Positions 1-21,997 of a DNA stretch of 28,427 nucleotides are shown piece by piece. The notes beneath the pieces are model-generated. The model ran no database searches and was not told the origin of the DNA. It saw only the letters and a list, made by a program, of their open reading frames with translations. Made by a program: the position numbers and the translations under genes. The stretch lies in the IMG/VR virus record IMGVR_UViG_3300017752_000107, positions 1-28,427 of that record; one strand, 5' to 3'. The first letter of the stretch is position 1. The number at the start of each line of letters is the position of its first letter. The DNA comes from a virus.

Positions 1-3000
1 GAGGGTGATTTTAATATAAAAGGTTTTACACAAAGTAATTTTTTAAACATTGGTACTTATACAGGTGACAAAATAAATAGTTCTACTTTACCAGACACGC
101 CATCTGAGCATTTAATAAATTTAGCACCGCCATCCGATACAAATTATTATGGTGGCGGTATTTCATGGAGTGAGAGTGCAAACACTGCGGCTAGTATTGG
201 AGTTTATGATGCTGGAGCAACTGGTGCTTTAGGTTTTTATATAGCTACTGGTAATAATTCAACTTTAACACAAGCATTAACAATTAATGATTCTCAAGAA
301 ATATTGTTAACTAATACACATTCAAAAAGCAAAATCAAACTTATTGGTAATGGTAATGAATGGATTGGAACATCAGCTGCAAGATTAGAATTATCTGGCG
401 CTAGTATTAGTTTAAATGGAGCAGCTGGTAGTGGAGCTACTAATTTATTAAATAATGGAATAACACATATTGACACAAACCATAATGTTTATGCAAATCA
501 ATATTTAAATAAAAATGCTACAACTCAGTTGGCTATTTACGGTTATGGTAACACAAATAAAGTTATAGATGGTGTTAGTGGAGCTACTTATTATAGAGCA
601 TCTGGAACTAGCACTTTATGTAGCACACATCAAGGTGGTTATATAATACTTGCTACTGGTTTAGCTTATGGTGCAGTAAATAATTATACACAAATAATAA
701 ATGGCTCATCTGGAGCTATTAGTGGAACATCAGCAACATTTAGCGGATCGGTTGGTATTGGCGGGAATACACCATCAAGTTTATTAATGGTCGGTGATGG
801 TGCTAATGCTCCAAATGGAATTGCAACAATATCACTAACTGGACCAAATACAGTTCCACAAATAGCATCAAAACCTGGTATGTATCATAGACATGGAATT
901 GGTTTAGGTTTATATTCTGATTATAAAATGACATTTGAGGTTGATGGTTCAACATCCTTAATAACAGCCATGACTATTGATGATGATGGTCAAGTAGGTA
1001 TTAATGATCCAAACCCTAGCTTTATATTAGATTCAAACATAACAAGCAGTAGAGCAAGGTTCAAAGCAAATACAGGAAATGCAAACATAGAATTATCTTG
1101 TATTGCTGGACACGATTATCTTATACAAAGTAAAACAGATAGTAGTTTTGCTATTTATGATGAAGATGCCGCATCAGATAGATTAATAATAGACAGTGAT
1201 GGAAATATTGGAATTGGAATTGATCCATCTTGTAAATTAGATGTAAACGGTATAATAACTCCAAGAGGTAATGCCATTAGATTAGCTGGTCCAACTGATG
1301 CAAACCACTTTTTACAAAAATTTAGCAGTGGTTATAGCGGTTATACAATAGATGGTCCAATGTTACAAGGGCATCAAGGCGGTGAGTTAACAACAAATCT
1401 TGGCGGTAATGAATGGGCGTTAAGATGGGCAACTGGCGGCAAGGTATATATTAACAATCAATTAGAAATTGGAACTGTTGGAGTTGGTGTTGTTGGGTTA
1501 GGAGTTTACACAAGTGGTGAATCAACAGCTCCAAATGTTAGATTTGGAAGAGATGCTGCACAATATATAGGATTTAAAGTTGGAGATAGAGTAAATACTG
1601 TTGTTTTTAGGCAAGATGAGGGTACTGGCAATCATGCAGCACATTTAGATTTATGGTCAAGTACTACTGGCAATAAAACATTTAGATTTAGAGAATGTGA
1701 TCAAAATGGTAATTCAATTGCTGATCGTGTAATTATTGAAAATGGTGATTTTGGTATTGGTGGCGAACCAAGTACGAAATTTCATGTTAACGCTTTTAAT
1801 TTACCTTACGACAATGCTGAAGGTTTAGCAATATTTGAAGATAATGGAGATAGAAAAATTGTAGTTGGTGGTTTAGGTTTGTTCAGATATGATACCAATG
1901 CCACTGCTGATTTGAGAATGAATTGGATAGGTTATAATGGTGGAATAACTCAACCTAGAGATTTAGATATTTACGATGGTAAAAAGAATCTAATAGCTAG
2001 ATTTGATGGATCGACACAAAGAGTGGGGATTGGTGTGAATGCTCCTTCACAAAAATTACAAGTAGATGGGGGTGTTACATCTGTTAATCAAGGAATACCA
2101 GCAACATCTGGCACATCACAAAATGGCATATTAAGATTAACACCCGGAGACCTTACTTATGGTGAAACTTTAGATTTTGGAATGAATGTTGGTCCAACGT
2201 ATGCTTGGATTCAATCAACAAATAGAGATGGTTTAAACACTAATTATTCTTTGGCATTAAATCCAAATGGGGGTGACGTTGGTATAGGTACGTCATCACC
2301 ATCACACAAATTAACAATAGGAAGTGGACAAAGTAATTATATAAGATTACATAATGCGGCAAGTGGTGATGTTTCATCTGGAATACTTATTGAAAGAGGC
2401 ACAGCAACTGGTTTACAGATTTATGATAATCCAGCTGATAATGCATCAACATTCTTAGCTGAGGGCATGATGAATTTTAGAACTAATGGATCACAAAGAT
2501 TAAGAATTGATACCTCTGGCAACGCCGCATTTGAACAAAATATAGGTATGGCAAATGGCAAGTCAATATATTTTGCAACATTATCTGATCCAAACTGGCG
2601 AATAGGTAGAAACATACATTCCTATACTAATTCAATAGTTACTGCTAACTCAATTGATATTCTGGCTCATGCTGGGAGTGCTCAAGGATTTTCAATAGGT
2701 GCAAATAATGCCACACATTCATCATTTGAAATTAAGCACAATACTAATAATGTTCATCAATTCTTAATGAGAGGTTATGTCGGAATTAATGAAACTGCAA
2801 CTTTAGCTAATAGAAAACTTTATACTGGCGGTGGTTATTTTATTGGTGGTGGTGGATATAATAGCGGTGGCTATACAGCAGATGGTTTATTTGGTTCAAC
2901 AGCAACCCCAAATGCTTTAACATTTGCAAGTGGTCGTAGGGTGTTATTAGGTTATACTGATAATGGTTCTGGTTTATATGCTGAAACAATGGCTATTGAA

Positions 3001-3732
3001 ACACATTCAACAGATGGTTTAAACAATACAGTTGAAAAAAATGCATTTCTTATAAAAAATATTAATAGTGGTAGTCATGTATTTACAGTTTCTAACTTAG
3101 GTACTGTCCATTGTGATAGTCGATTACAAGTTAATAATACAACCAGAACAGATGAGGCGTTAAATGTTAATGGTAGTATTAAAGGTGTTTCATCACAAGG
3201 TTACACTACATTTTTCCACAATGATCCATATCATGGAATTTGTTTAAGAGGTACGCCAACTGCTTATAATTCTACAACCATGACTCCAGGTGATGTTATG
3301 AGTTTTATGGAATATTCTGGTGATTTTAGGTTTTACCAGAAAAAATCTAATGGTATTTTGTCAGTACAAGGGAAATTATACACAGGTACTTGGACAGTTT
3401 CTGGTGATGTTATTGCTTTTGGTTCGCCATCTGATATATCATTAAAAGAAAATATTAAACCTATTGATTCAGCTTTAGACAAAGCCATAAAGTTACAAGG
3501 GGTTACATTTGACTGGAAAGAAAAAGAAGATAATATTTTAGATATAAAACAAGATATTGGGTTTATAGCACAAGATGTTCAGAAAGTAGTGCCAGAATTA
3601 GTTAGACAAAATGATAATGGTTTATTATCTTTAAGGCATCAAGGTATTGCACCAATACTTTTAGAAGCTATAAAAGAATTGAAAGCTGAGGTTGATAGTT
3701 TAAGAAACGAAATAAAAGAACTAAAAAAATGA
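1..3732 (+). CDS. Tail fibre with C-terminal S74 intramolecular chaperone (5' partial)
   Basis: The reading frame is open from base 1, so the N-terminus lies outside the window and 1243 residues are visible. The body is Gly/Asn/Ser/Thr-rich beta-repeat sequence typical of trimeric phage fibres, with degenerate GIG..PS.KL.V units. The end is a peptidase S74 (endosialidase-type) chaperone domain. Its SDISLKENI motif begins at Ser1144 (bases 3430-3432), with Lys five residues later, which matches the known Ser-Lys self-cleavage pair. GFIAQDVQ follows, then a terminal coiled coil with heptad-like LLEAIKELKAEV. In this family the domain drives trimer folding and cuts itself off before the Ser, which here would release about 100 residues. 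The stop overlaps the next start (ATGA), so the two genes are probably translationally coupled. The receptor and the N-terminal tail-attachment part cannot be judged. Confidence 0.87.
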   Translation, partial: EGDFNIKGFTQSNFLNIGTYTGDKINSSTLPDTPSEHLINLAPPSDTNYYGGGISWSESANTAASIGVYDAGATGALGFYIATGNNSTLTQALTINDSQEILLTNTHSKSKIKLIGNGNEWIGTSAARLELSGASISLNGAAGSGATNLLNNGITHIDTNHNVYANQYLNKNATTQLAIYGYGNTNKVIDGVSGATYYRASGTSTLCSTHQGGYIILATGLAYGAVNNYTQIINGSSGAISGTSATFSGSVGIGGNTPSSLLMVGDGANAPNGIATISLTGPNTVPQIASKPGMYHRHGIGLGLYSDYKMTFEVDGSTSLITAMTIDDDGQVGINDPNPSFILDSNITSSRARFKANTGNANIELSCIAGHDYLIQSKTDSSFAIYDEDAASDRLIIDSDGNIGIGIDPSCKLDVNGIITPRGNAIRLAGPTDANHFLQKFSSGYSGYTIDGPMLQGHQGGELTTNLGGNEWALRWATGGKVYINNQLEIGTVGVGVVGLGVYTSGESTAPNVRFGRDAAQYIGFKVGDRVNTVVFRQDEGTGNHAAHLDLWSSTTGNKTFRFRECDQNGNSIADRVIIENGDFGIGGEPSTKFHVNAFNLPYDNAEGLAIFEDNGDRKIVVGGLGLFRYDTNATADLRMNWIGYNGGITQPRDLDIYDGKKNLIARFDGSTQRVGIGVNAPSQKLQVDGGVTSVNQGIPATSGTSQNGILRLTPGDLTYGETLDFGMNVGPTYAWIQSTNRDGLNTNYSLALNPNGGDVGIGTSSPSHKLTIGSGQSNYIRLHNAASGDVSSGILIERGTATGLQIYDNPADNASTFLAEGMMNFRTNGSQRLRIDTSGNAAFEQNIGMANGKSIYFATLSDPNWRIGRNIHSYTNSIVTANSIDILAHAGSAQGFSIGANNATHSSFEIKHNTNNVHQFLMRGYVGINETATLANRKLYTGGGYFIGGGGYNSGGYTADGLFGSTATPNALTFASGRRVLLGYTDNGSGLYAETMAIETHSTDGLNNTVEKNAFLIKNINSGSHVFTVSNLGTVHCDSRLQVNNTTRTDEALNVNGSIKGVSSQGYTTFFHNDPYHGICLRGTPTAYNSTTMTPGDVMSFMEYSGDFRFYQKKSNGILSVQGKLYTGTWTVSGDVIAFGSPSDISLKENIKPIDSALDKAIKLQGVTFDWKEKEDNILDIKQDIGFIAQDVQKVVPELVRQNDNGLLSLRHQGIAPILLEAIKELKAEVDSLRNEIKELKK
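751..2826 (+). repeat. Degenerate GIG-x-PS-x-KL-x-V fibre repeats inside the tail fibre gene
   Basis: About seven copies of a protein-level motif are spread through the fibre: VGIGGNTPSSLLMV, VGINDPNPSFIL, IGIGIDPSCKLDV, FGIGGEPSTKFHV, VGIGVNAPSQKLQV, VGIGTSSPSHKLTI and the weaker VGINETATLANRKL. Spacing is irregular (roughly 250 to 550 bases). The motif is common in fibres that end in S74 domains, where it probably marks turns between beta-stalk segments. The DNA copies are too diverged to be simple tandem repeats. Confidence 0.65.
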
Positions 3733-18016: not shown

Positions 18017-18355
18017 ATGGAAAAACATGAGCTTAAGAGGGTTAAAAAATATTTGTTAGAATTAGCCGATGAAATTATGACGGCTAAACAACCCGAATAC
18101 ACTAACAAAAATATAGACGTTTTAAACAACTTTAAAACTAGCGCCAAGTTAGTTGGCATAACACCCGAAGAAATATGGGCAGCGCATTTTATAAAGCACG
18201 TACAATCAATATTAAGTCATGCTCATAATCCGGGTATGGAAAAAGCGGAGCCAATACAAACAAGATATGCTGATGCAATAAACTATTTATTTTTAGGGTT
18301 TTGTCTAGTTGTAGAAAACGAAATCGACAATGATATTATAAGCGGAACAGAATGA
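18017..18355 (+). CDS. Helical phage protein, possibly DUF1599/Nmad1-like
   Basis: The 112-residue helical protein contains AKQPEYTNKNIDVLNNFKTS, a W-x-x-HF-x-KH segment (EEIWAAHFIKHVQSI) and a final RYADAINYLFLGFCLVVEN helix. K-x-x-x-Y ... D-x-x-x-NF ... KH ... R-x-x-D-x-x-NY is similar to the DUF1599 'nucleotide modification associated' family and related all-helical NTP-pyrophosphatase-like proteins of phages. If so, it may bind or hydrolyse modified or unwanted nucleotides. Position supports this: it is two genes upstream of the DNA modification cassette. The stop overlaps the next start (ATGA). The family call is tentative and based on a pattern of a few residues. Confidence 0.45.
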   Translation: MEKHELKRVKKYLLELADEIMTAKQPEYTNKNIDVLNNFKTSAKLVGITPEEIWAAHFIKHVQSILSHAHNPGMEKAEPIQTRYADAINYLFLGFCLVVENEIDNDIISGTE

Positions 18356-18579
18356 ATATTTATTTAGAGGCACAAAGCTACTGTTTAGCACAGGGAATTA
18401 AAATTTACATTGTAGCTCTTGAAAGAACAAAAGAATGTAAAATTGAGGTTGATAATAACGGAAAATTAATTAAATCTCCTAACACATATAAAAATCAAAA
18501 AATAGCGTCAGAAAAGATTTGGGATATTTATTTAAATTTGTATAAAAAATTAAACGATGATAAAAACAGTAAACATTAA
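18352..18579 (+). CDS. Small protein, unknown function
   Basis: A 75-residue protein: helix (NIYLEAQSYCLAQG), strand (IKIYIVALERTKECKIEV), a loop with KLIKSPNTYKNQK, and a C-terminal helix (ASEKIWDIYLNLYKKLN). It overlaps the upstream stop by four bases, and its own last 23 bases overlap the ParB-like gene. A TAnnTTTG promoter box for the downstream genes lies inside it at 18533-18540. No known domain is recognised. Confidence 0.5.
   Translation: MNIYLEAQSYCLAQGIKIYIVALERTKECKIEVDNNGKLIKSPNTYKNQKIASEKIWDIYLNLYKKLNDDKNSKH
18533..18540 (+). promoter_or_regulatory. Candidate promoter box for the DNA modification cassette
   Basis: TAAATTTG is an exact TAnnTTTG match, 16 nt before the ATG of the ParB-like gene, the same spacing as at 4762, 7108 and 26283. 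It lies inside the preceding small gene. No well-placed -33 TTG was found (TTTG at 18518 is too close). Confidence 0.5.
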
Positions 18580-19147
18580 GGAAGTTAAATCAAACCCGGA
18601 TAATCCGAGATTTATCAAAGATCACAAATTTAAAAAGTTAGTACAATCATTAAAGGATTTTCCAGAGATGTTAGAAAAACGTCCTATGGTAGTTGACGAA
18701 AATATGGTTGTTTTAGGCGGAAATATGAGGTTAAAAGCTTGTAGTGCAGCCGGTTTTGACAAAGTTCACATTGTAATAGCTAAAGGTTGGTCAGAGGAGC
18801 AAAAAAGACAATTTATAATAAAAGACAATGTATCATACGGTGAGTGGGATTACGATATTTTGGCAAACGTATGGGATAATCAAGATTTAATTTCTTGGGG
18901 ATTAGATCTTCCAAAATGGGATAATGACATTGAATTTGAAGTTGGAAACGACAATGAAGAAGATTATGAATACCCAGATGAAATAAACGATTCTCATGTA
19001 AAAATGGTACAATTATTTTTAACTACTGAAACCGAGCCACAACTCAGAAGAATGGAATTAGAATTAAGAGATTTTTTACAAACCGATAATTTAACAGATA
19101 GTATATTTCAAGCAATTAAAAAACTACACAATGATAACAGAGCATAA
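18557..19147 (+). CDS. ParB/Srx-like domain protein
   Basis: The protein has 196 residues. The first 120 form a ParB N-terminal-like (ParB/sulfiredoxin fold) domain: VKSNPDNPRFIKDHKFKKLV with N-P-R at 16-18, LKDFPEMLEKRPMVVDENMV, VLGGNMRLKACSAAG (GGNMR at 54-58), FIIKDNVSYGEWDYDILANV and LISWGLDLP. This version is usually found fused or next to DNA methylases or other DNA-modifying enzymes in phages. Here the methylase domain is absent; the last 50 residues are an acidic linker and a VKMVQLFLTT ... QAIKKL tail. It overlaps the TET/JBP-like gene by 17 nt. It may supply nucleotide binding, nucleolytic or targeting activity to the modification complex, but its biochemical role here is not known. 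Confidence 0.8.
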   Translation: MIKTVNIKEVKSNPDNPRFIKDHKFKKLVQSLKDFPEMLEKRPMVVDENMVVLGGNMRLKACSAAGFDKVHIVIAKGWSEEQKRQFIIKDNVSYGEWDYDILANVWDNQDLISWGLDLPKWDNDIEFEVGNDNEEDYEYPDEINDSHVKMVQLFLTTETEPQLRRMELELRDFLQTDNLTDSIFQAIKKLHNDNRA

Positions 19148-20024
19148 TGTAATGCCTAAAATGTCTGATAAAGAAGCTGCAAAATTATCTGGCAAATTAT
19201 TAGGTGATAAAGATTTTAATTTACTTATAAACTATGACGCTGACGTTATATGTGAAGAAAGCGGCAATATAATTGCGAAATTTAGAAAAAACATAATTCC
19301 GGGCAACATAGCTAAAGCAGGATTTGAAAACTTAAAAACGGCCGCAAAACACACTAACAACAGAGGGGTTAGCAGTGGAGATGTTGAAACTGATATTTTA
19401 AAAAGACGCCCGGTTAAAAAAGACGGAACAATGTCAAATACAAATAAAGCTTTACAAAAAGTAAACAGTGGTATAATTGGTTTTTTTGATCGCAACGCAA
19501 GATTTCCATATTGTCGTCAAACAGCATTTAATGAACATGAATTTAATAAATTTACAAAGGCATATCCAATTATAAAATTTGTTGACAAAAAATACTCTGA
19601 ACTAATGCCAGATCATTATAAGCTACAAAGAAAAATTGCTGATGAAACGAGTAAAGATTTTGTAATACCAGATACAGCGTTTACAACAGTGACGGTAAAT
19701 AAAAATTGGCAAACTGCCGTACACACTGATAAAGGCGATTATGAAAAAGGTTTTGGAAATTTAGTTGTGTTAAGAAAAGGGAGATACACTGGCGGTTATT
19801 TTGTTGTTCCTAAATGGGGAGTGGCTTTTGATATACAAAACTGTGATTTATTATTAGTTGACGTACATCAGTGGCACGGTAACACTCCAATTAATAAAAT
19901 AGATGAAAAAGCTACAAGAATATCATTGGTAATGTATTACAGGGAAAAAATGATTTCTTGTGGTTCAGCAGATGAAGAATTAGAAATTGCTAAAAATAGA
20001 TCTAAGGGCCAAAAAATTTATTAA
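19131..20024 (+). CDS. TET/JBP-type 2OG-Fe(II) dioxygenase, DNA base hydroxylase
   Basis: The protein has 297 residues. The catalytic half is typical of phage TET/JBP dioxygenases: TVTVNKNWQTAVHTD with H198-x-D200 as metal ligands, GDYEKGFGNLVVL, KGRYTGGYFVVPKWGVAFD, and LLLVDVHQWHGNTPI with His249 as third ligand. R263 in TRISLVMYYRE would hold 2-oxoglutarate. FPYCRQTAF near 125-133 is another conserved-looking patch. TET proteins oxidise 5-methylcytosine in DNA and JBP proteins oxidise thymine. The following amino acid:DNA transferase and kinase genes, whose known relatives act on 5-hydroxymethyl-dU, favour thymine. ATG at 19152 is an alternative start. The stop overlaps the next start (TAATG). 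No cytosine methylase is visible in the window. Confidence 0.85.
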   Translation: MITEHNVMPKMSDKEAAKLSGKLLGDKDFNLLINYDADVICEESGNIIAKFRKNIIPGNIAKAGFENLKTAAKHTNNRGVSSGDVETDILKRRPVKKDGTMSNTNKALQKVNSGIIGFFDRNARFPYCRQTAFNEHEFNKFTKAYPIIKFVDKKYSELMPDHYKLQRKIADETSKDFVIPDTAFTTVTVNKNWQTAVHTDKGDYEKGFGNLVVLRKGRYTGGYFVVPKWGVAFDIQNCDLLLVDVHQWHGNTPINKIDEKATRISLVMYYREKMISCGSADEELEIAKNRSKGQKIY

Positions 20025-20635
20025 TGTGCGGCATCATTGGTTACAGCTCAGAAAATCCTACTGAGGAACATTTTGATATTTTACAAAAATTAATATTACA
20101 ATCAAAAATTAGAGGTTTACACAGTTTTGGTTTTAGCTATGTAAAAGACGGATTAAAAACAGTCAAAAAAAAGAATGTTAGTGATATAAAATTACCATTG
20201 GTAAATAAATTAATATTCCACAACAGATATTCTACAAGCGGTGATTATAAAATTGAAAAAAACAATCAACCTATTATATCAAAAAACAATACAGTTGTAT
20301 TTAACGGAGTTCTTGATATGAGCTCAAAATTAGAAATGGAAAAAAAATACAATGTAAAGATGAACACAGAAAATGACGGCGAATTAATAAGCTTGTTATG
20401 TGGAACTGATAAAAGTAAAATTAAAGATTTTATTACAACCACTTCCGGGAGCATCGCAGGTATGCAACTAACAGATGAAAATAAACTTTATTTATTTAGA
20501 AACGAAAACCGGCCCGCTTGGATTTTAAAACATAAAAACGCAATATTTATAGCATCTACAAAAGACATTTTTCAAAGAGTTGATGCAAGCTACAACCCGG
20601 AAACCGTTACACCGTACGAAATACATGAACTATAA
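20024..20635 (+). CDS. Stand-alone class II glutamine amidotransferase (Ntn glutaminase) domain
   Basis: The protein has 203 residues and begins MCGIIGYSS, so after Met removal Cys2 is the N-terminal nucleophile as in GlmS, PurF and AsnB. Further conserved-looking elements are IRGLHSFG (29-36), HNRYSTSGDYKIEKNNQP (66-83), VVFNGVL with Asn94-Gly95 that stabilise the oxyanion, and ENDGEL with Asp118. The late segment LYLFRNENRPAW fits the last strands. It would hydrolyse glutamine to ammonia. No synthetase or sugar-isomerase domain is attached, so the acceptor must be another protein. Its place between the TET/JBP-like and amino acid:DNA transferase genes suggests that ammonia is used in making the modified base. 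The stop lies within the next gene (11-nt overlap). Confidence 0.85.
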   Translation: MCGIIGYSSENPTEEHFDILQKLILQSKIRGLHSFGFSYVKDGLKTVKKKNVSDIKLPLVNKLIFHNRYSTSGDYKIEKNNQPIISKNNTVVFNGVLDMSSKLEMEKKYNVKMNTENDGELISLLCGTDKSKIKDFITTTSGSIAGMQLTDENKLYLFRNENRPAWILKHKNAIFIASTKDIFQRVDASYNPETVTPYEIHEL

Positions 20636-21500
20636 TTACATAGATTATCACATAGAATCCTCAAAGGCAAAAGACATTGACCCGAGTAATGATTGTTTAA
20701 AATATATTTCAGACAGATTTGAGCTAAATATTGAACAGAGGTTTTGGCTAGCTTTTTTATATGGCACTTGCTATTCAGCTACAACGGTTTATTATATGTA
20801 CAATGAATTTCCTGATTACGAAAACGTCAATGTAAATAGATTAGAAAAATGGTGGAACGAAAACAAACAAAAAACAATATTTCAAACAGATAGATTAAGG
20901 ATAAAATCATCAAATAAATTAGTTGAAACATTTATTAGTTATAAAAAAATGCTTGGAAATATGAGTCAAGCTGATTACTTTTCTAGTTTAAAACAACCAA
21001 CACCGCAGATGACGTATGATAATTGTTTTACACAATTAAATAATATTAAAAATTTTGGAAGGTTTACTTTATTTATTTATATAGAAATGATAAATGTATT
21101 AACGGATTACAATTTAAAACCAACCTATTTAGACCTTAGGCAAGCCGAGAGCTGCCGAAATGGTTTAGTTGAACATTTAGGCAAAGAAGAATTATACACG
21201 CATAAAAACGACAGAAAATTGTCTAAAAATCAAATTAACTATTTACAGTATGAATTTAAGGAATTAATGAAAAACGTAAATAAATATGATATTCAACATA
21301 AAAATATATGGAATGTAGAAACTACTTTATGCGCTTATAAAAAATATAAACGTGGTAAACGATACATTGGATATTACATTGAAAGGCAAAAAAAAGAAAT
21401 ACTTAAAATACAAGATCTAGTGAAGACCGGTGTTGATTGGAATGTATTATGGGATTTTAGAAACGAAAACTATGAAAAAAAATGGCTAACAGAATATTAG
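20625..21500 (+). CDS. Amino acid:DNA transferase family protein (former aGPT-Pplase2)
   Basis: The preferred start, ATG at 20625 (MNYNYIDYHI), gives 291 residues; a TTG frame from 20580 would overlap the amidotransferase further. The sequence has the alpha-helical (DNA glycosylase-like) pattern of this family: FWLAFLYGTCYSATTVYYMY (40-59), EKWWNENKQKTIFQTDRLRI (74-93), IKNFGRFTLF (141-150), DLRQAESCRNGLVEHLG (170-186), ETTLCAYKKYKRGKRYIGYY (232-251) and LWDFRN. ET-x-LC-x-YKK and RYIGYY-x-x-R are especially characteristic. Members were predicted to work on thymine hypermodification and later reported to attach amino acids to phosphorylated 5-hydroxymethyl-dU in DNA. The kinase gene needed for that step follows and overlaps by 19 nt. 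Confidence 0.82.
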   Translation: MNYNYIDYHIESSKAKDIDPSNDCLKYISDRFELNIEQRFWLAFLYGTCYSATTVYYMYNEFPDYENVNVNRLEKWWNENKQKTIFQTDRLRIKSSNKLVETFISYKKMLGNMSQADYFSSLKQPTPQMTYDNCFTQLNNIKNFGRFTLFIYIEMINVLTDYNLKPTYLDLRQAESCRNGLVEHLGKEELYTHKNDRKLSKNQINYLQYEFKELMKNVNKYDIQHKNIWNVETTLCAYKKYKRGKRYIGYYIERQKKEILKIQDLVKTGVDWNVLWDFRNENYEKKWLTEY

Positions 21501-21997
21501 CACTGGGCGGTAAACCAGCAACAGGTAAAACAACTCTATTAAGAGATGTTATAAACACATATAAACCCTTTGTTAAATTCAATTTCGGATTAGTTAAAGG
21601 AATGTATTTTAGTAAACATTCACTGTATATAATAGGCATATATGATAAATCTGTATTTAGCGGCACTGATAAACTATCAATGGCTGTACAACCAGATTTT
21701 ATAAGATTTTGTAAAAAAATAGAAAACGGAAAAATATTGTTTGAGGGCGATCGTCTGTTTAATCAAAGTTTATTTGATAAAGTTAACTGTGATATAATGG
21801 TTATAGAAGTTAATGAAAAAATAGAAAAACAAAGACACAAAAAAAGAAATGACAGTCAATCGGCTAAATTTATTAAATCAAAGCAAACTAAAATTGAAAA
21901 TATTAAAAAAAATAACAGTGTAGATTTATTTAATAATAACACAAAAAAACAATATAAAGACATATTAAACAAAATAAAGTATTTTTGTACTAAATAG
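21482..21997 (+). CDS. P-loop kinase, probable 5-hydroxymethyl-dU DNA kinase
   Basis: A 171-residue P-loop NTPase. Walker A is GGKPATGKTTLL (9-20). FSGTDKLSMAVQP (59-71) is a substrate-side loop, and GKILFEGDRLFN (83-94) is a Walker B-like strand with Glu88 and Asp90. EKQRHKKRND (115-124) is a lid-like basic stretch. The small size and the GTDKLS/FEGDRL pattern resemble the P-loop kinases associated with phage base hypermodification. In the known pathway the kinase phosphorylates 5-hydroxymethyl-dU in DNA, making a leaving group for the amino acid:DNA transferase encoded just upstream. A general nucleotide kinase is the main alternative; the gene neighbours argue against it. The end is Lys/Asn-rich and ordinary for this genome. 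Confidence 0.72.
   Translation: MANRILALGGKPATGKTTLLRDVINTYKPFVKFNFGLVKGMYFSKHSLYIIGIYDKSVFSGTDKLSMAVQPDFIRFCKKIENGKILFEGDRLFNQSLFDKVNCDIMVIEVNEKIEKQRHKKRNDSQSAKFIKSKQTKIENIKKNNSVDLFNNNTKKQYKDILNKIKYFCTK

What the first reader, a model, noticed from the sequence alone, without database searches (positions are those of the whole stretch)
18557..21997. Compact phage DNA hypermodification cassette with five overlapping genes
Seen: the ParB-like, TET/JBP-like dioxygenase, class II amidotransferase, amino acid:DNA transferase-like and P-loop kinase genes overlap by 17, 1, 11 and 19 nt in one direction. Known: TET/JBP enzymes hydroxylate DNA pyrimidines; hmdU DNA kinases and amino acid:DNA transferases act in turn on 5-hydroxymethyl-dU in thymine-hypermodifying phages. 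Inferred: a pathway T to 5-hmU to 5-phosphomethyl-U to an aminoacyl-linked base, perhaps then amidated. I do not recall this exact five-gene order with a stand-alone amidotransferase as experimentally characterised.
Basis: partly seen in the sequence, partly recalled or inferred. Interest (0 to 1): 0.9.

Follow-up and report, generated by a model that had tools for sequence, protein, structure and literature searches.

The report
Ammonia-using variant of phage thymine hypermodification
A small phage carries five overlapping genes that probably rebuild the thymine bases of its DNA; an ammonia-making enzyme sits where better-known relatives use a glycine-attaching and glycine-trimming pair, and the same arrangement recurs in about a hundred uncultured viral sequences.

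Summary
The core ParB-TET-ADDT-kinase set upstream of terminase is already annotated in Gordonia, Rhodococcus and Mycobacterium phages. New here is the GATase. In 126 related loci, every uncut member of this ADDT clade (96 of 96) has the GATase beside it. GATase never co-occurs with the flavoprotein that partners another ADDT clade and resembles the solved flavin-dependent lyase of phage PaMx11, which makes 5-aminomethyl-dU from glycyl-thymidine. In a close relative of this phage the GATase+ADDT pair is exchanged in place for ADDT+flavoprotein, with ParB, TET and kinase kept. Acetyltransferases recur in several positions of GATase cassettes. Best reading: T to 5-hmU (TET), to 5-phosphomethyl-U (kinase), then direct amination on the ADDT by GATase-derived ammonia, giving 5-aminomethyl-U: a PurF-like shortcut avoiding glycine. 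The chemistry is inferred; nothing was assayed. New variant of a known kind.

The parts
18557..19147 (+). ParB-like protein (196 aa); probable DNA-binding/targeting partner, role unknown
   Evidence: PF02195 E 4e-4 (below cut-off), PHROG 940/620 E about 1e-24; first gene of the cassette in nearly all relatives and in Gordonia phage Wooper and Mycobacterium phage Heath
19131..20024 (+). TET/JBP 2-oxoglutarate/Fe(II) dioxygenase (297 aa); predicted thymine methyl hydroxylase
   Evidence: PF12851 94.7 bits, cut-off 34.9; H198-x-D200...H246 and R263 invariant in eight homologues
20024..20635 (+). stand-alone class II (N-terminal Cys) glutamine amidotransferase/glutaminase domain (203 aa); predicted ammonia source
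   Evidence: catalytic C2, R68, N94-G95 and D118 invariant in 47 representatives; nearest solved structures are PurF, E 4e-9; all 92 full-length homologues begin Met-Cys
20625..21500 (+). amino acid:DNA transferase homologue, GATase-linked clade (291 aa)
   Evidence: PF18724 62.2 bits; AlphaFold2 model pLDDT 96 matches PaMx11 5-PmdU glycinyltransferase 8z2m, Z 19.8 over 255 residues
21482..21997 (+). P-loop kinase (171 aa); predicted 5-hydroxymethyl-U DNA kinase
   Evidence: GGKPATGKTT P-loop; profile of six homologues against annotated 5-hmU DNA kinase of Gordonia phage Wooper: hhalign 95%, E 3e-8

Best explanation
This is a post-replicative thymine hypermodification cassette. (a) The TET/JBP enzyme hydroxylates the methyl group of selected thymines in phage DNA to 5-hydroxymethyl-U; the ParB-like protein may choose the sites. 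(b) The kinase makes 5-phosphomethyl-U (or the pyrophosphate). (c) The GATase hydrolyses glutamine and delivers ammonia to the neighbouring ADDT, whose nucleophile is then ammonia instead of an amino acid; it displaces the (pyro)phosphate, giving 5-aminomethyl-U directly, as PurF does with PRPP. (d) In many relatives, but not in this phage, a GNAT enzyme would acetylate the amine. Shown by sequence: gene content, active-site residues, GATase-ADDT pairing, in-place module exchange, acetyltransferase recurrence. Inferred: every reaction, ammonia as nucleophile, the product, and protection against host nucleases. My estimate is about 0.9 for a thymine hypermodification cassette and 0.6 for the direct-amination step.
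For: TET/JBP and ADDT above curated cut-offs. ADDT model matches the PaMx11 5-PmdU glycinyltransferase far above everything else (Z 19.8; next HhH DNA glycosylases at 8.7). GATase has all class II catalytic residues and no synthetase domain. In 126 loci GATase occurs with this ADDT clade in 96 of 96 uncut cases; flavoprotein occurs with the other clade in 13 of 13; GATase and flavoprotein never together; the kinase-led sample, not chosen for GATase, shows the same split, 26 GATase against 12 flavoprotein plus five cut loci; whole-record search found no GATase in 11 flavoprotein-type records while the positive control rang. The flavoprotein relates to Ab18 ORF10 (hhalign E 1.5e-9), which is almost identical to the PDB 'flavin-dependent lyase'. 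Contigs L009/L010 share with the window DnaD-like 71%, primase about 80%, ParB about 66%, TET 74% and kinase about 60% but carry ADDT+flavoprotein in place of GATase+ADDT. GNAT genes in 68 GATase loci and at unusual positions in L161, L065, L169 and L174-L176; the PaMx11 sister Ab18 also has ADDT-flavoprotein-GNAT-kinase. No C5-methyltransferase in 12 records.
Against: No biochemistry. The GATase-linked ADDTs group with transferases of ViI-like Vibrio phages and of Heath and Montesquieu rather than with the glycinyltransferases, so they might still use an amino acid. Heath has the same core without GATase. Loss of the glycine site could not be tested. The kinase is below Pfam's cut-off. The scans that fetched the loci started from these genes, so counts are not population frequencies.
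Confidence: 0.6

Rival explanations
1. The ADDT attaches an amino acid as in characterised phages, and GATase ammonia then amidates its carboxylate.
For: The ADDT belongs to the amino acid:DNA transferase family and is nearer to non-glycine transferases than to the glycinyltransferases.
Against: Amidation of a carboxylate needs ATP-dependent activation, and no ligase or synthetase is found in the cassette or consistently beside it; phage GATases that do sit with amidoligases or ATP-grasp enzymes (tf, Lyrsu01, Edmundo) are fused to other domains and have no ADDT. GATase is strictly tied to the ADDT, not to any ligase.
Confidence: 0.13
2. The class II domain works as a hydrolase on a glutamine-derived adduct, or supplies glutamate that the ADDT attaches, giving an alpha-glutamyl-type thymine.
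For: Alpha-glutamylthymine is a known phage base (established knowledge); weak aGPT-Pplase3 match of the ADDT, E 1.6e-5.
Against: The residues equivalent to those that bind the free alpha-amino and carboxylate groups of glutamine (R68, D118) are invariant, which fits free glutamine rather than an N-substituted one; recurrent acetyltransferases are not explained.
Confidence: 0.1
3. The TET enzyme acts on 5-methylcytosine and the cassette hypermodifies cytosine.
For: Phage TET enzymes acting on 5mC are known (Burke 2021, from memory; the paper is not held).
Against: No C5-cytosine methyltransferase in the window or in 11 other records including a 35.5-kb close relative (the control rang); kinase and ADDT are thymine-pathway families.
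Confidence: 0.07
4. The GATase is an unrelated accessory gene (for example nucleotide or cell-wall metabolism) that merely travels with the cassette.
For: Other phages carry class II GATases outside modification cassettes.
Against: 96 of 96 pairing with one ADDT clade across at least 38 clusters at 70% identity, kept when TET and kinase are exchanged for other types (L121, L159 groups) or TET is missing (L169, L174-L176).
Confidence: 0.05

Closest known systems
ParB-Tet/JBP-ADDT(aGPT-Pplase2)-5-hmU kinase cassettes of Gordonia phage Wooper, Rhodococcus phage Tonitrus and Mycobacterium phage Heath
   Same: Same four core genes, same order, immediately upstream of the terminase (PMC11955845)
   Different: No GATase; Wooper has a flavoprotein-like fifth gene, Heath none
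PaMx11/Ab18 5-aminomethyl-dU pathway (5-PmdU glycinyltransferase 8z2m, flavin-dependent lyase 8z2o; Wen 2024, title only, cited in PMC11946847)
   Same: ADDT fold and 5-phosphomethyl-dU chemistry; GNAT next to the pathway; predicted product 5-aminomethyl-dU
   Different: Here TET replaces the dUMP hydroxymethylase and GATase replaces the flavin lyase; the ADDT belongs to another branch
PurF amidophosphoribosyltransferase (class II GATase)
   Same: Nearest solved relatives of the GATase; ammonia displacing a pyrophosphate is the proposed analogy
   Different: PurF's glutaminase is fused to its acceptor domain; here it is a free 203-aa protein and the presumed acceptor is a DNA base
Phage TET + C5-methyltransferase cytosine hypermodification (Burke 2021, from memory)
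   Same: TET/JBP enzyme used as entry point
   Different: No methyltransferase found and thymine-type downstream enzymes

Membership tests
TET/JBP dioxygenases (PF12851) | profile match above curated cut-off | tested here: met
   94.7 bits against 34.9
TET/JBP dioxygenases (PF12851) | HxD...H iron ligands and 2-oxoglutarate arginine | tested here: met
   H198, D200, H246, R263 invariant in eight homologues
TET/JBP dioxygenases (PF12851) | oxidation of thymine or 5mC in DNA | not testable with these tools
   needs enzyme assay
Amino acid:DNA transferase (ADDT, PF18724) | profile match above curated cut-off | tested here: met
   62.2 bits against 26.2
Amino acid:DNA transferase (ADDT, PF18724) | fold of a characterised member | tested here: met
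   8z2m Z 19.8, rmsd 3.2, 255 residues aligned
Amino acid:DNA transferase (ADDT, PF18724) | transfers an amino acid | not testable with these tools
   the proposal is that this clade uses ammonia instead; ligand-site residues could not be compared
Class II glutamine amidotransferase (PurF/GlmS type) | N-terminal catalytic Cys after Met, Arg, Asn-Gly and Asp residues | tested here: met
   C2, R68, N94-G95, D118 invariant in 47 representatives
Class II glutamine amidotransferase (PurF/GlmS type) | profile relation to known members | tested here: met
   window protein 23.1 bits, under the PF13522 cut-off of 27, but homologues in the records of L012 and L133 reach 43.6 and 34.4 bits; family profile against PurF E 4e-9
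Class II glutamine amidotransferase (PurF/GlmS type) | fused synthase/acceptor domain | tested here: not met
   203-aa stand-alone domain; it is filed as a free GATase subunit, not as PurF or GlmS
5-hmU DNA kinase (PF18751 Ploopntkinase3) | profile match above curated cut-off | tested here: not met
   15.5 bits against 27; not filed as a member
5-hmU DNA kinase (PF18751 Ploopntkinase3) | distant relation to a PF18751 member | tested here: met
   profile of six homologues against Wooper gp4 hhalign 95%, E 3e-8; Wooper gp4 is PF18751 at 9e-59
PaMx11-type 5-NmdU pathway | flavin-dependent lyase beside the transferase | tested here: not met
   absent from the cassette; GATase in its place
PaMx11-type 5-NmdU pathway | phage dUMP hydroxymethylase as source of 5-hmU | tested here: inconclusive
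   no thymidylate-synthase-like family was noticed in the window's annotated genes; PF00303 was searched in relatives only (0 of 12, including a 35.5-kb close relative) and the window is incomplete
TET + C5-methyltransferase cytosine pathway | C5-cytosine methyltransferase | tested here: not met
   PF00145 0 of 12 records including the window, control rings in 10 of 14; window incomplete

The most novel reading that the evidence does not exclude
The GATase and its partner ADDT form an ammonia-channelling DNA aminase that converts 5-phosphomethyl-U in DNA to 5-aminomethyl-U in one step, an ammonia-dependent DNA base hypermodification that evolved in parallel to the glycine-plus-flavin route; in TET-less versions a radical SAM enzyme takes over the first oxidation of the thymine methyl group.
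Probability: 0.4. Interest if true: 0.82.

Novelty: new variant of a known kind. Interest (0 to 1): 0.63.

Why it matters
If the direct-amination reading is right, phages have two independent, interchangeable routes to the same aminated thymine, one through glycine and a flavin enzyme and one through glutamine-derived ammonia. The in-place exchange within one phage lineage makes it testable by expressing either module with the same TET and kinase. It would add glutaminase-driven amination to the chemistry known for DNA bases, give a compact five-gene set for installing a primary amine in DNA after replication (TET acts on finished DNA, so no altered nucleotide pool is needed), and predicts acetylated and free-amine versions by gene content alone.

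Tried and rejected
AlphaFold2 model of the flavoprotein from L009 was poor (pLDDT 40), so it was not searched; sequence profiles were used instead. A comparison of kinase alignment A8 with Wooper's kinase was circular, because A8 holds that sequence; it is discarded in favour. ADDT profile A6 against Ab18 ADDT by sequence was weak (E 0.003, 11%); the structural match carries that link. Kinase profile against PDB gave only generic P-loop matches, TET none of use, ADDT none by sequence. PF13522 is too insensitive to show absence of the GATase (it misses true ones), so the family alignment was used. Pfam does not recognise the L009 flavoprotein at all. The key papers (Iyer 2013, Lee 2018 and 2022, Burke 2021, Wen 2024) are not held, so priority for the GATase association could not be fully checked; two literature searches combining thymidine hypermodification or 5-hmU kinase with amidotransferase found nothing relevant in the held library. 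Gene overlap as such was considered and rejected as evidence (13 of 34 junctions overlap).
Full report
OBSERVATION. The five ORFs are present at the stated coordinates, all on the + strand, with overlaps of 17, 1, 11 and 19 nt. Overlap is common in this genome (13 of 34 junctions), so the interest lies in what the genes are and in their conservation. The window is a whole 28.4-kb IMG/VR record of a tailed phage: tail fibre with S74 chaperone, tape measure, Erf-like annealing protein, exonuclease VIII-like, primase/helicase, the cassette, then small and large terminase, portal, Mu F-like protein, protease and major capsid protein. It is incomplete: the first gene is open at the left end, and the usual genes between capsid and tail are missing. 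Its terminase is closest to Parabacteroides and Bacteroides phages at about 39% identity, suggesting a Bacteroidota host.

FAMILIES. The second gene is TET/JBP above Pfam's cut-off, with iron and 2-oxoglutarate residues intact. The fourth is ADDT above the cut-off; its AlphaFold2 model (pLDDT 96) matches the crystal structure of the 5-phosphomethyl-dU glycinyltransferase of Pseudomonas phage PaMx11 (Z 19.8, 255 residues), with helix-hairpin-helix DNA glycosylases next at Z 8.7 and below. The third is a free class II glutaminase domain with every catalytic residue, nearest in sequence to PurF. The fifth is a P-loop kinase distantly related to the annotated 5-hmU DNA kinase of Gordonia phage Wooper, although below Pfam's cut-off itself. 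The first is ParB-like.

KNOWN RELATIVES. Gordonia phage Wooper has ParB, Tet/JBP, aGPT-Pplase2 (ADDT), 5-hmU kinase, one more gene, then terminase. Rhodococcus phage Tonitrus is described with the same five and called a thymidine hypermodification system (PMC11955845). Mycobacterium phage Heath has ParB, a TET protein misnamed queuine tRNA-ribosyltransferase, ADDT and kinase before its terminase. The core is therefore already known as a prediction, and the added GATase is the feature that needs explaining.

COMPARATIVE EVIDENCE. Scans of viral contigs with ADDT, TET, GATase and kinase brought in 126 non-redundant loci after merging duplicates. GATase is present in 97. Of the 103 loci assigned to this ADDT branch, 96 have GATase; of the other seven, four are cut by the contig end (L004, L054, L055, L057) and three are distant ADDTs of large phages (L020, L023, L024). 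A second ADDT clade (13 loci) is always next to a flavoprotein-like gene and never has GATase; GATase and flavoprotein never co-occur. The kinase-led subset, which was not selected for GATase, shows the same split: 26 with GATase, 12 with flavoprotein, five cut loci. A search of whole records with the GATase profile found none in nine flavoprotein-type contigs, Wooper or Ab18, while the positive control rang. GATases fall into 57 clusters at 90% and 38 at 70% identity, so this is not one clone. GATase and ADDT are adjacent or overlapping, or separated only by a roughly 400-nt acetyltransferase gene.

MODULE EXCHANGE. Contigs L009 and L010 are close relatives of this phage: DnaD-like 71%, primase 79-80%, two small upstream genes 62-67%, ParB 65-66%, TET 74%, kinase 59-60%. 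Between TET and kinase, GATase+ADDT is replaced by the other ADDT plus the flavoprotein. This is a natural substitution of one complete module for another under the same first two chemical steps. The flavoprotein's best PDB matches are 'flavin-dependent lyase' 8z2o and 8z79 (E 0.014, colinear over about 215 residues). Its profile aligns end to end with ORF10 of phage Ab18 (E 1.5e-9), which is almost identical to 8z2o (E 2e-173); the gene before it in Ab18 is almost identical to glycinyltransferase 8z2m. The title of Wen 2024, cited in PMC11946847, and my memory of its abstract say these two enzymes make N-alpha-glycyl-thymidine and then 5-aminomethyl-dU. PMC11550810 lists 5-aminomethyluracil among natural phage bases.

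ACETYLTRANSFERASES. A GNAT gene lies between GATase and ADDT in most GATase cassettes (68 loci hold one, always with GATase). GNAT-family genes also stand before GATase (L161), as a distant form between GATase and ADDT (L065), between ADDT and kinase (L169) and after the kinase in Bacteroidota prophages (L174-L176). Ab18 itself has ADDT, flavoprotein, GNAT, kinase. Repeated recruitment of an acetyltransferase in both kinds of cassette is what one expects if both end in an amine. The window's own cassette has no GNAT, so its product should be the free amine.

MECHANISM. Taken together: thymine is hydroxylated by TET, phosphorylated by the kinase, and aminated on the ADDT by ammonia from the GATase. 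In PurF, the closest solved relative of the GATase, ammonia displaces pyrophosphate from an activated carbon; 5-phosphomethyl-U offers the same kind of leaving group. TET acting on 5mC is unlikely, because no C5-methyltransferase was found in the window or in 11 other records. All reactions are inferred. The tree puts GATase-linked ADDTs apart from the glycinyltransferase branch (99/97) and on the side of ViI-like Vibrio, Heath and Montesquieu transferases, which fits a different nucleophile but does not say which; long branches make the deeper order unsure.

MODULARITY. The GATase+ADDT pair stays together while other parts change: in the L121 and L159 groups the TET is divergent, follows the ADDT, and the kinase is another P-loop protein; in L169-L171 and L174-L176 no TET was found and a radical SAM gene of one family is present. 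This supports GATase+ADDT as one catalytic unit.

VERDICT. Observation confirmed, interpretation partly supported. It is a new variant of a known kind, with a specific and cheaply testable prediction. The main limits are the lack of biochemistry, the un-held primary papers, and a fetched sample that is not a census.

Noticed in passing
L174:7909-9153, L176:7862-9112, L169:8065-10167, L170:3660-5692, L171:3119-4546: GATase cassettes with long enough flanks but no detectable TET all carry a radical SAM protein of one family (PF04055; NCSFGCIYCFS in L174), found in none of the TET-bearing loci scanned. It might replace TET in activating the thymine methyl group. In L169 it is fused to a TET-associated glycosyltransferase domain (PF20691).
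   Followed up: partly
L171:1773-4546: The radical SAM gene of L171 is split into two ORFs, and the second starts with sequence ending FFANKILVHN-C just before the CxxxCxxC cluster, which looks like an intein C-terminus.
   Followed up: no
L121:5555-6016, L159:6803-7309: In a side group the usual kinase is missing and a different P-loop protein sits in the cassette, before GATase or between ADDT and TET; a possible second kind of 5-hmU kinase.
   Followed up: no
L182:785-1759 (Mycobacterium phage Heath gene 2): Annotated 'queuine tRNA-ribosyltransferase' but matches the TET profile at 6e-50; PHROG 6059, which the window's TET also hits, carries the same misleading name.
   Followed up: partly
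L014:6876-8449 and L018:6790-7548: TET relatives at about 44% identity are followed by glycosyltransferase-looking genes (two tandem in L014) instead of kinase/ADDT; probably a different, glycosylating pathway.
   Followed up: no
L017:6887-7585 (Pelagibacter phage HTVC112P): ParB and TET relatives followed by an FkbM-type methyltransferase and no kinase or ADDT; another possible downstream chemistry.
   Followed up: no
window 18017-18579: Two small genes of unknown function directly upstream overlap each other and ParB; they are conserved only in the closest relatives, so they are treated as phage backbone rather than cassette.
   Followed up: partly
window 1-3732: Tail fibre with C-terminal S74 endosialidase-type chaperone, open at the left end of the record.
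   Followed up: no
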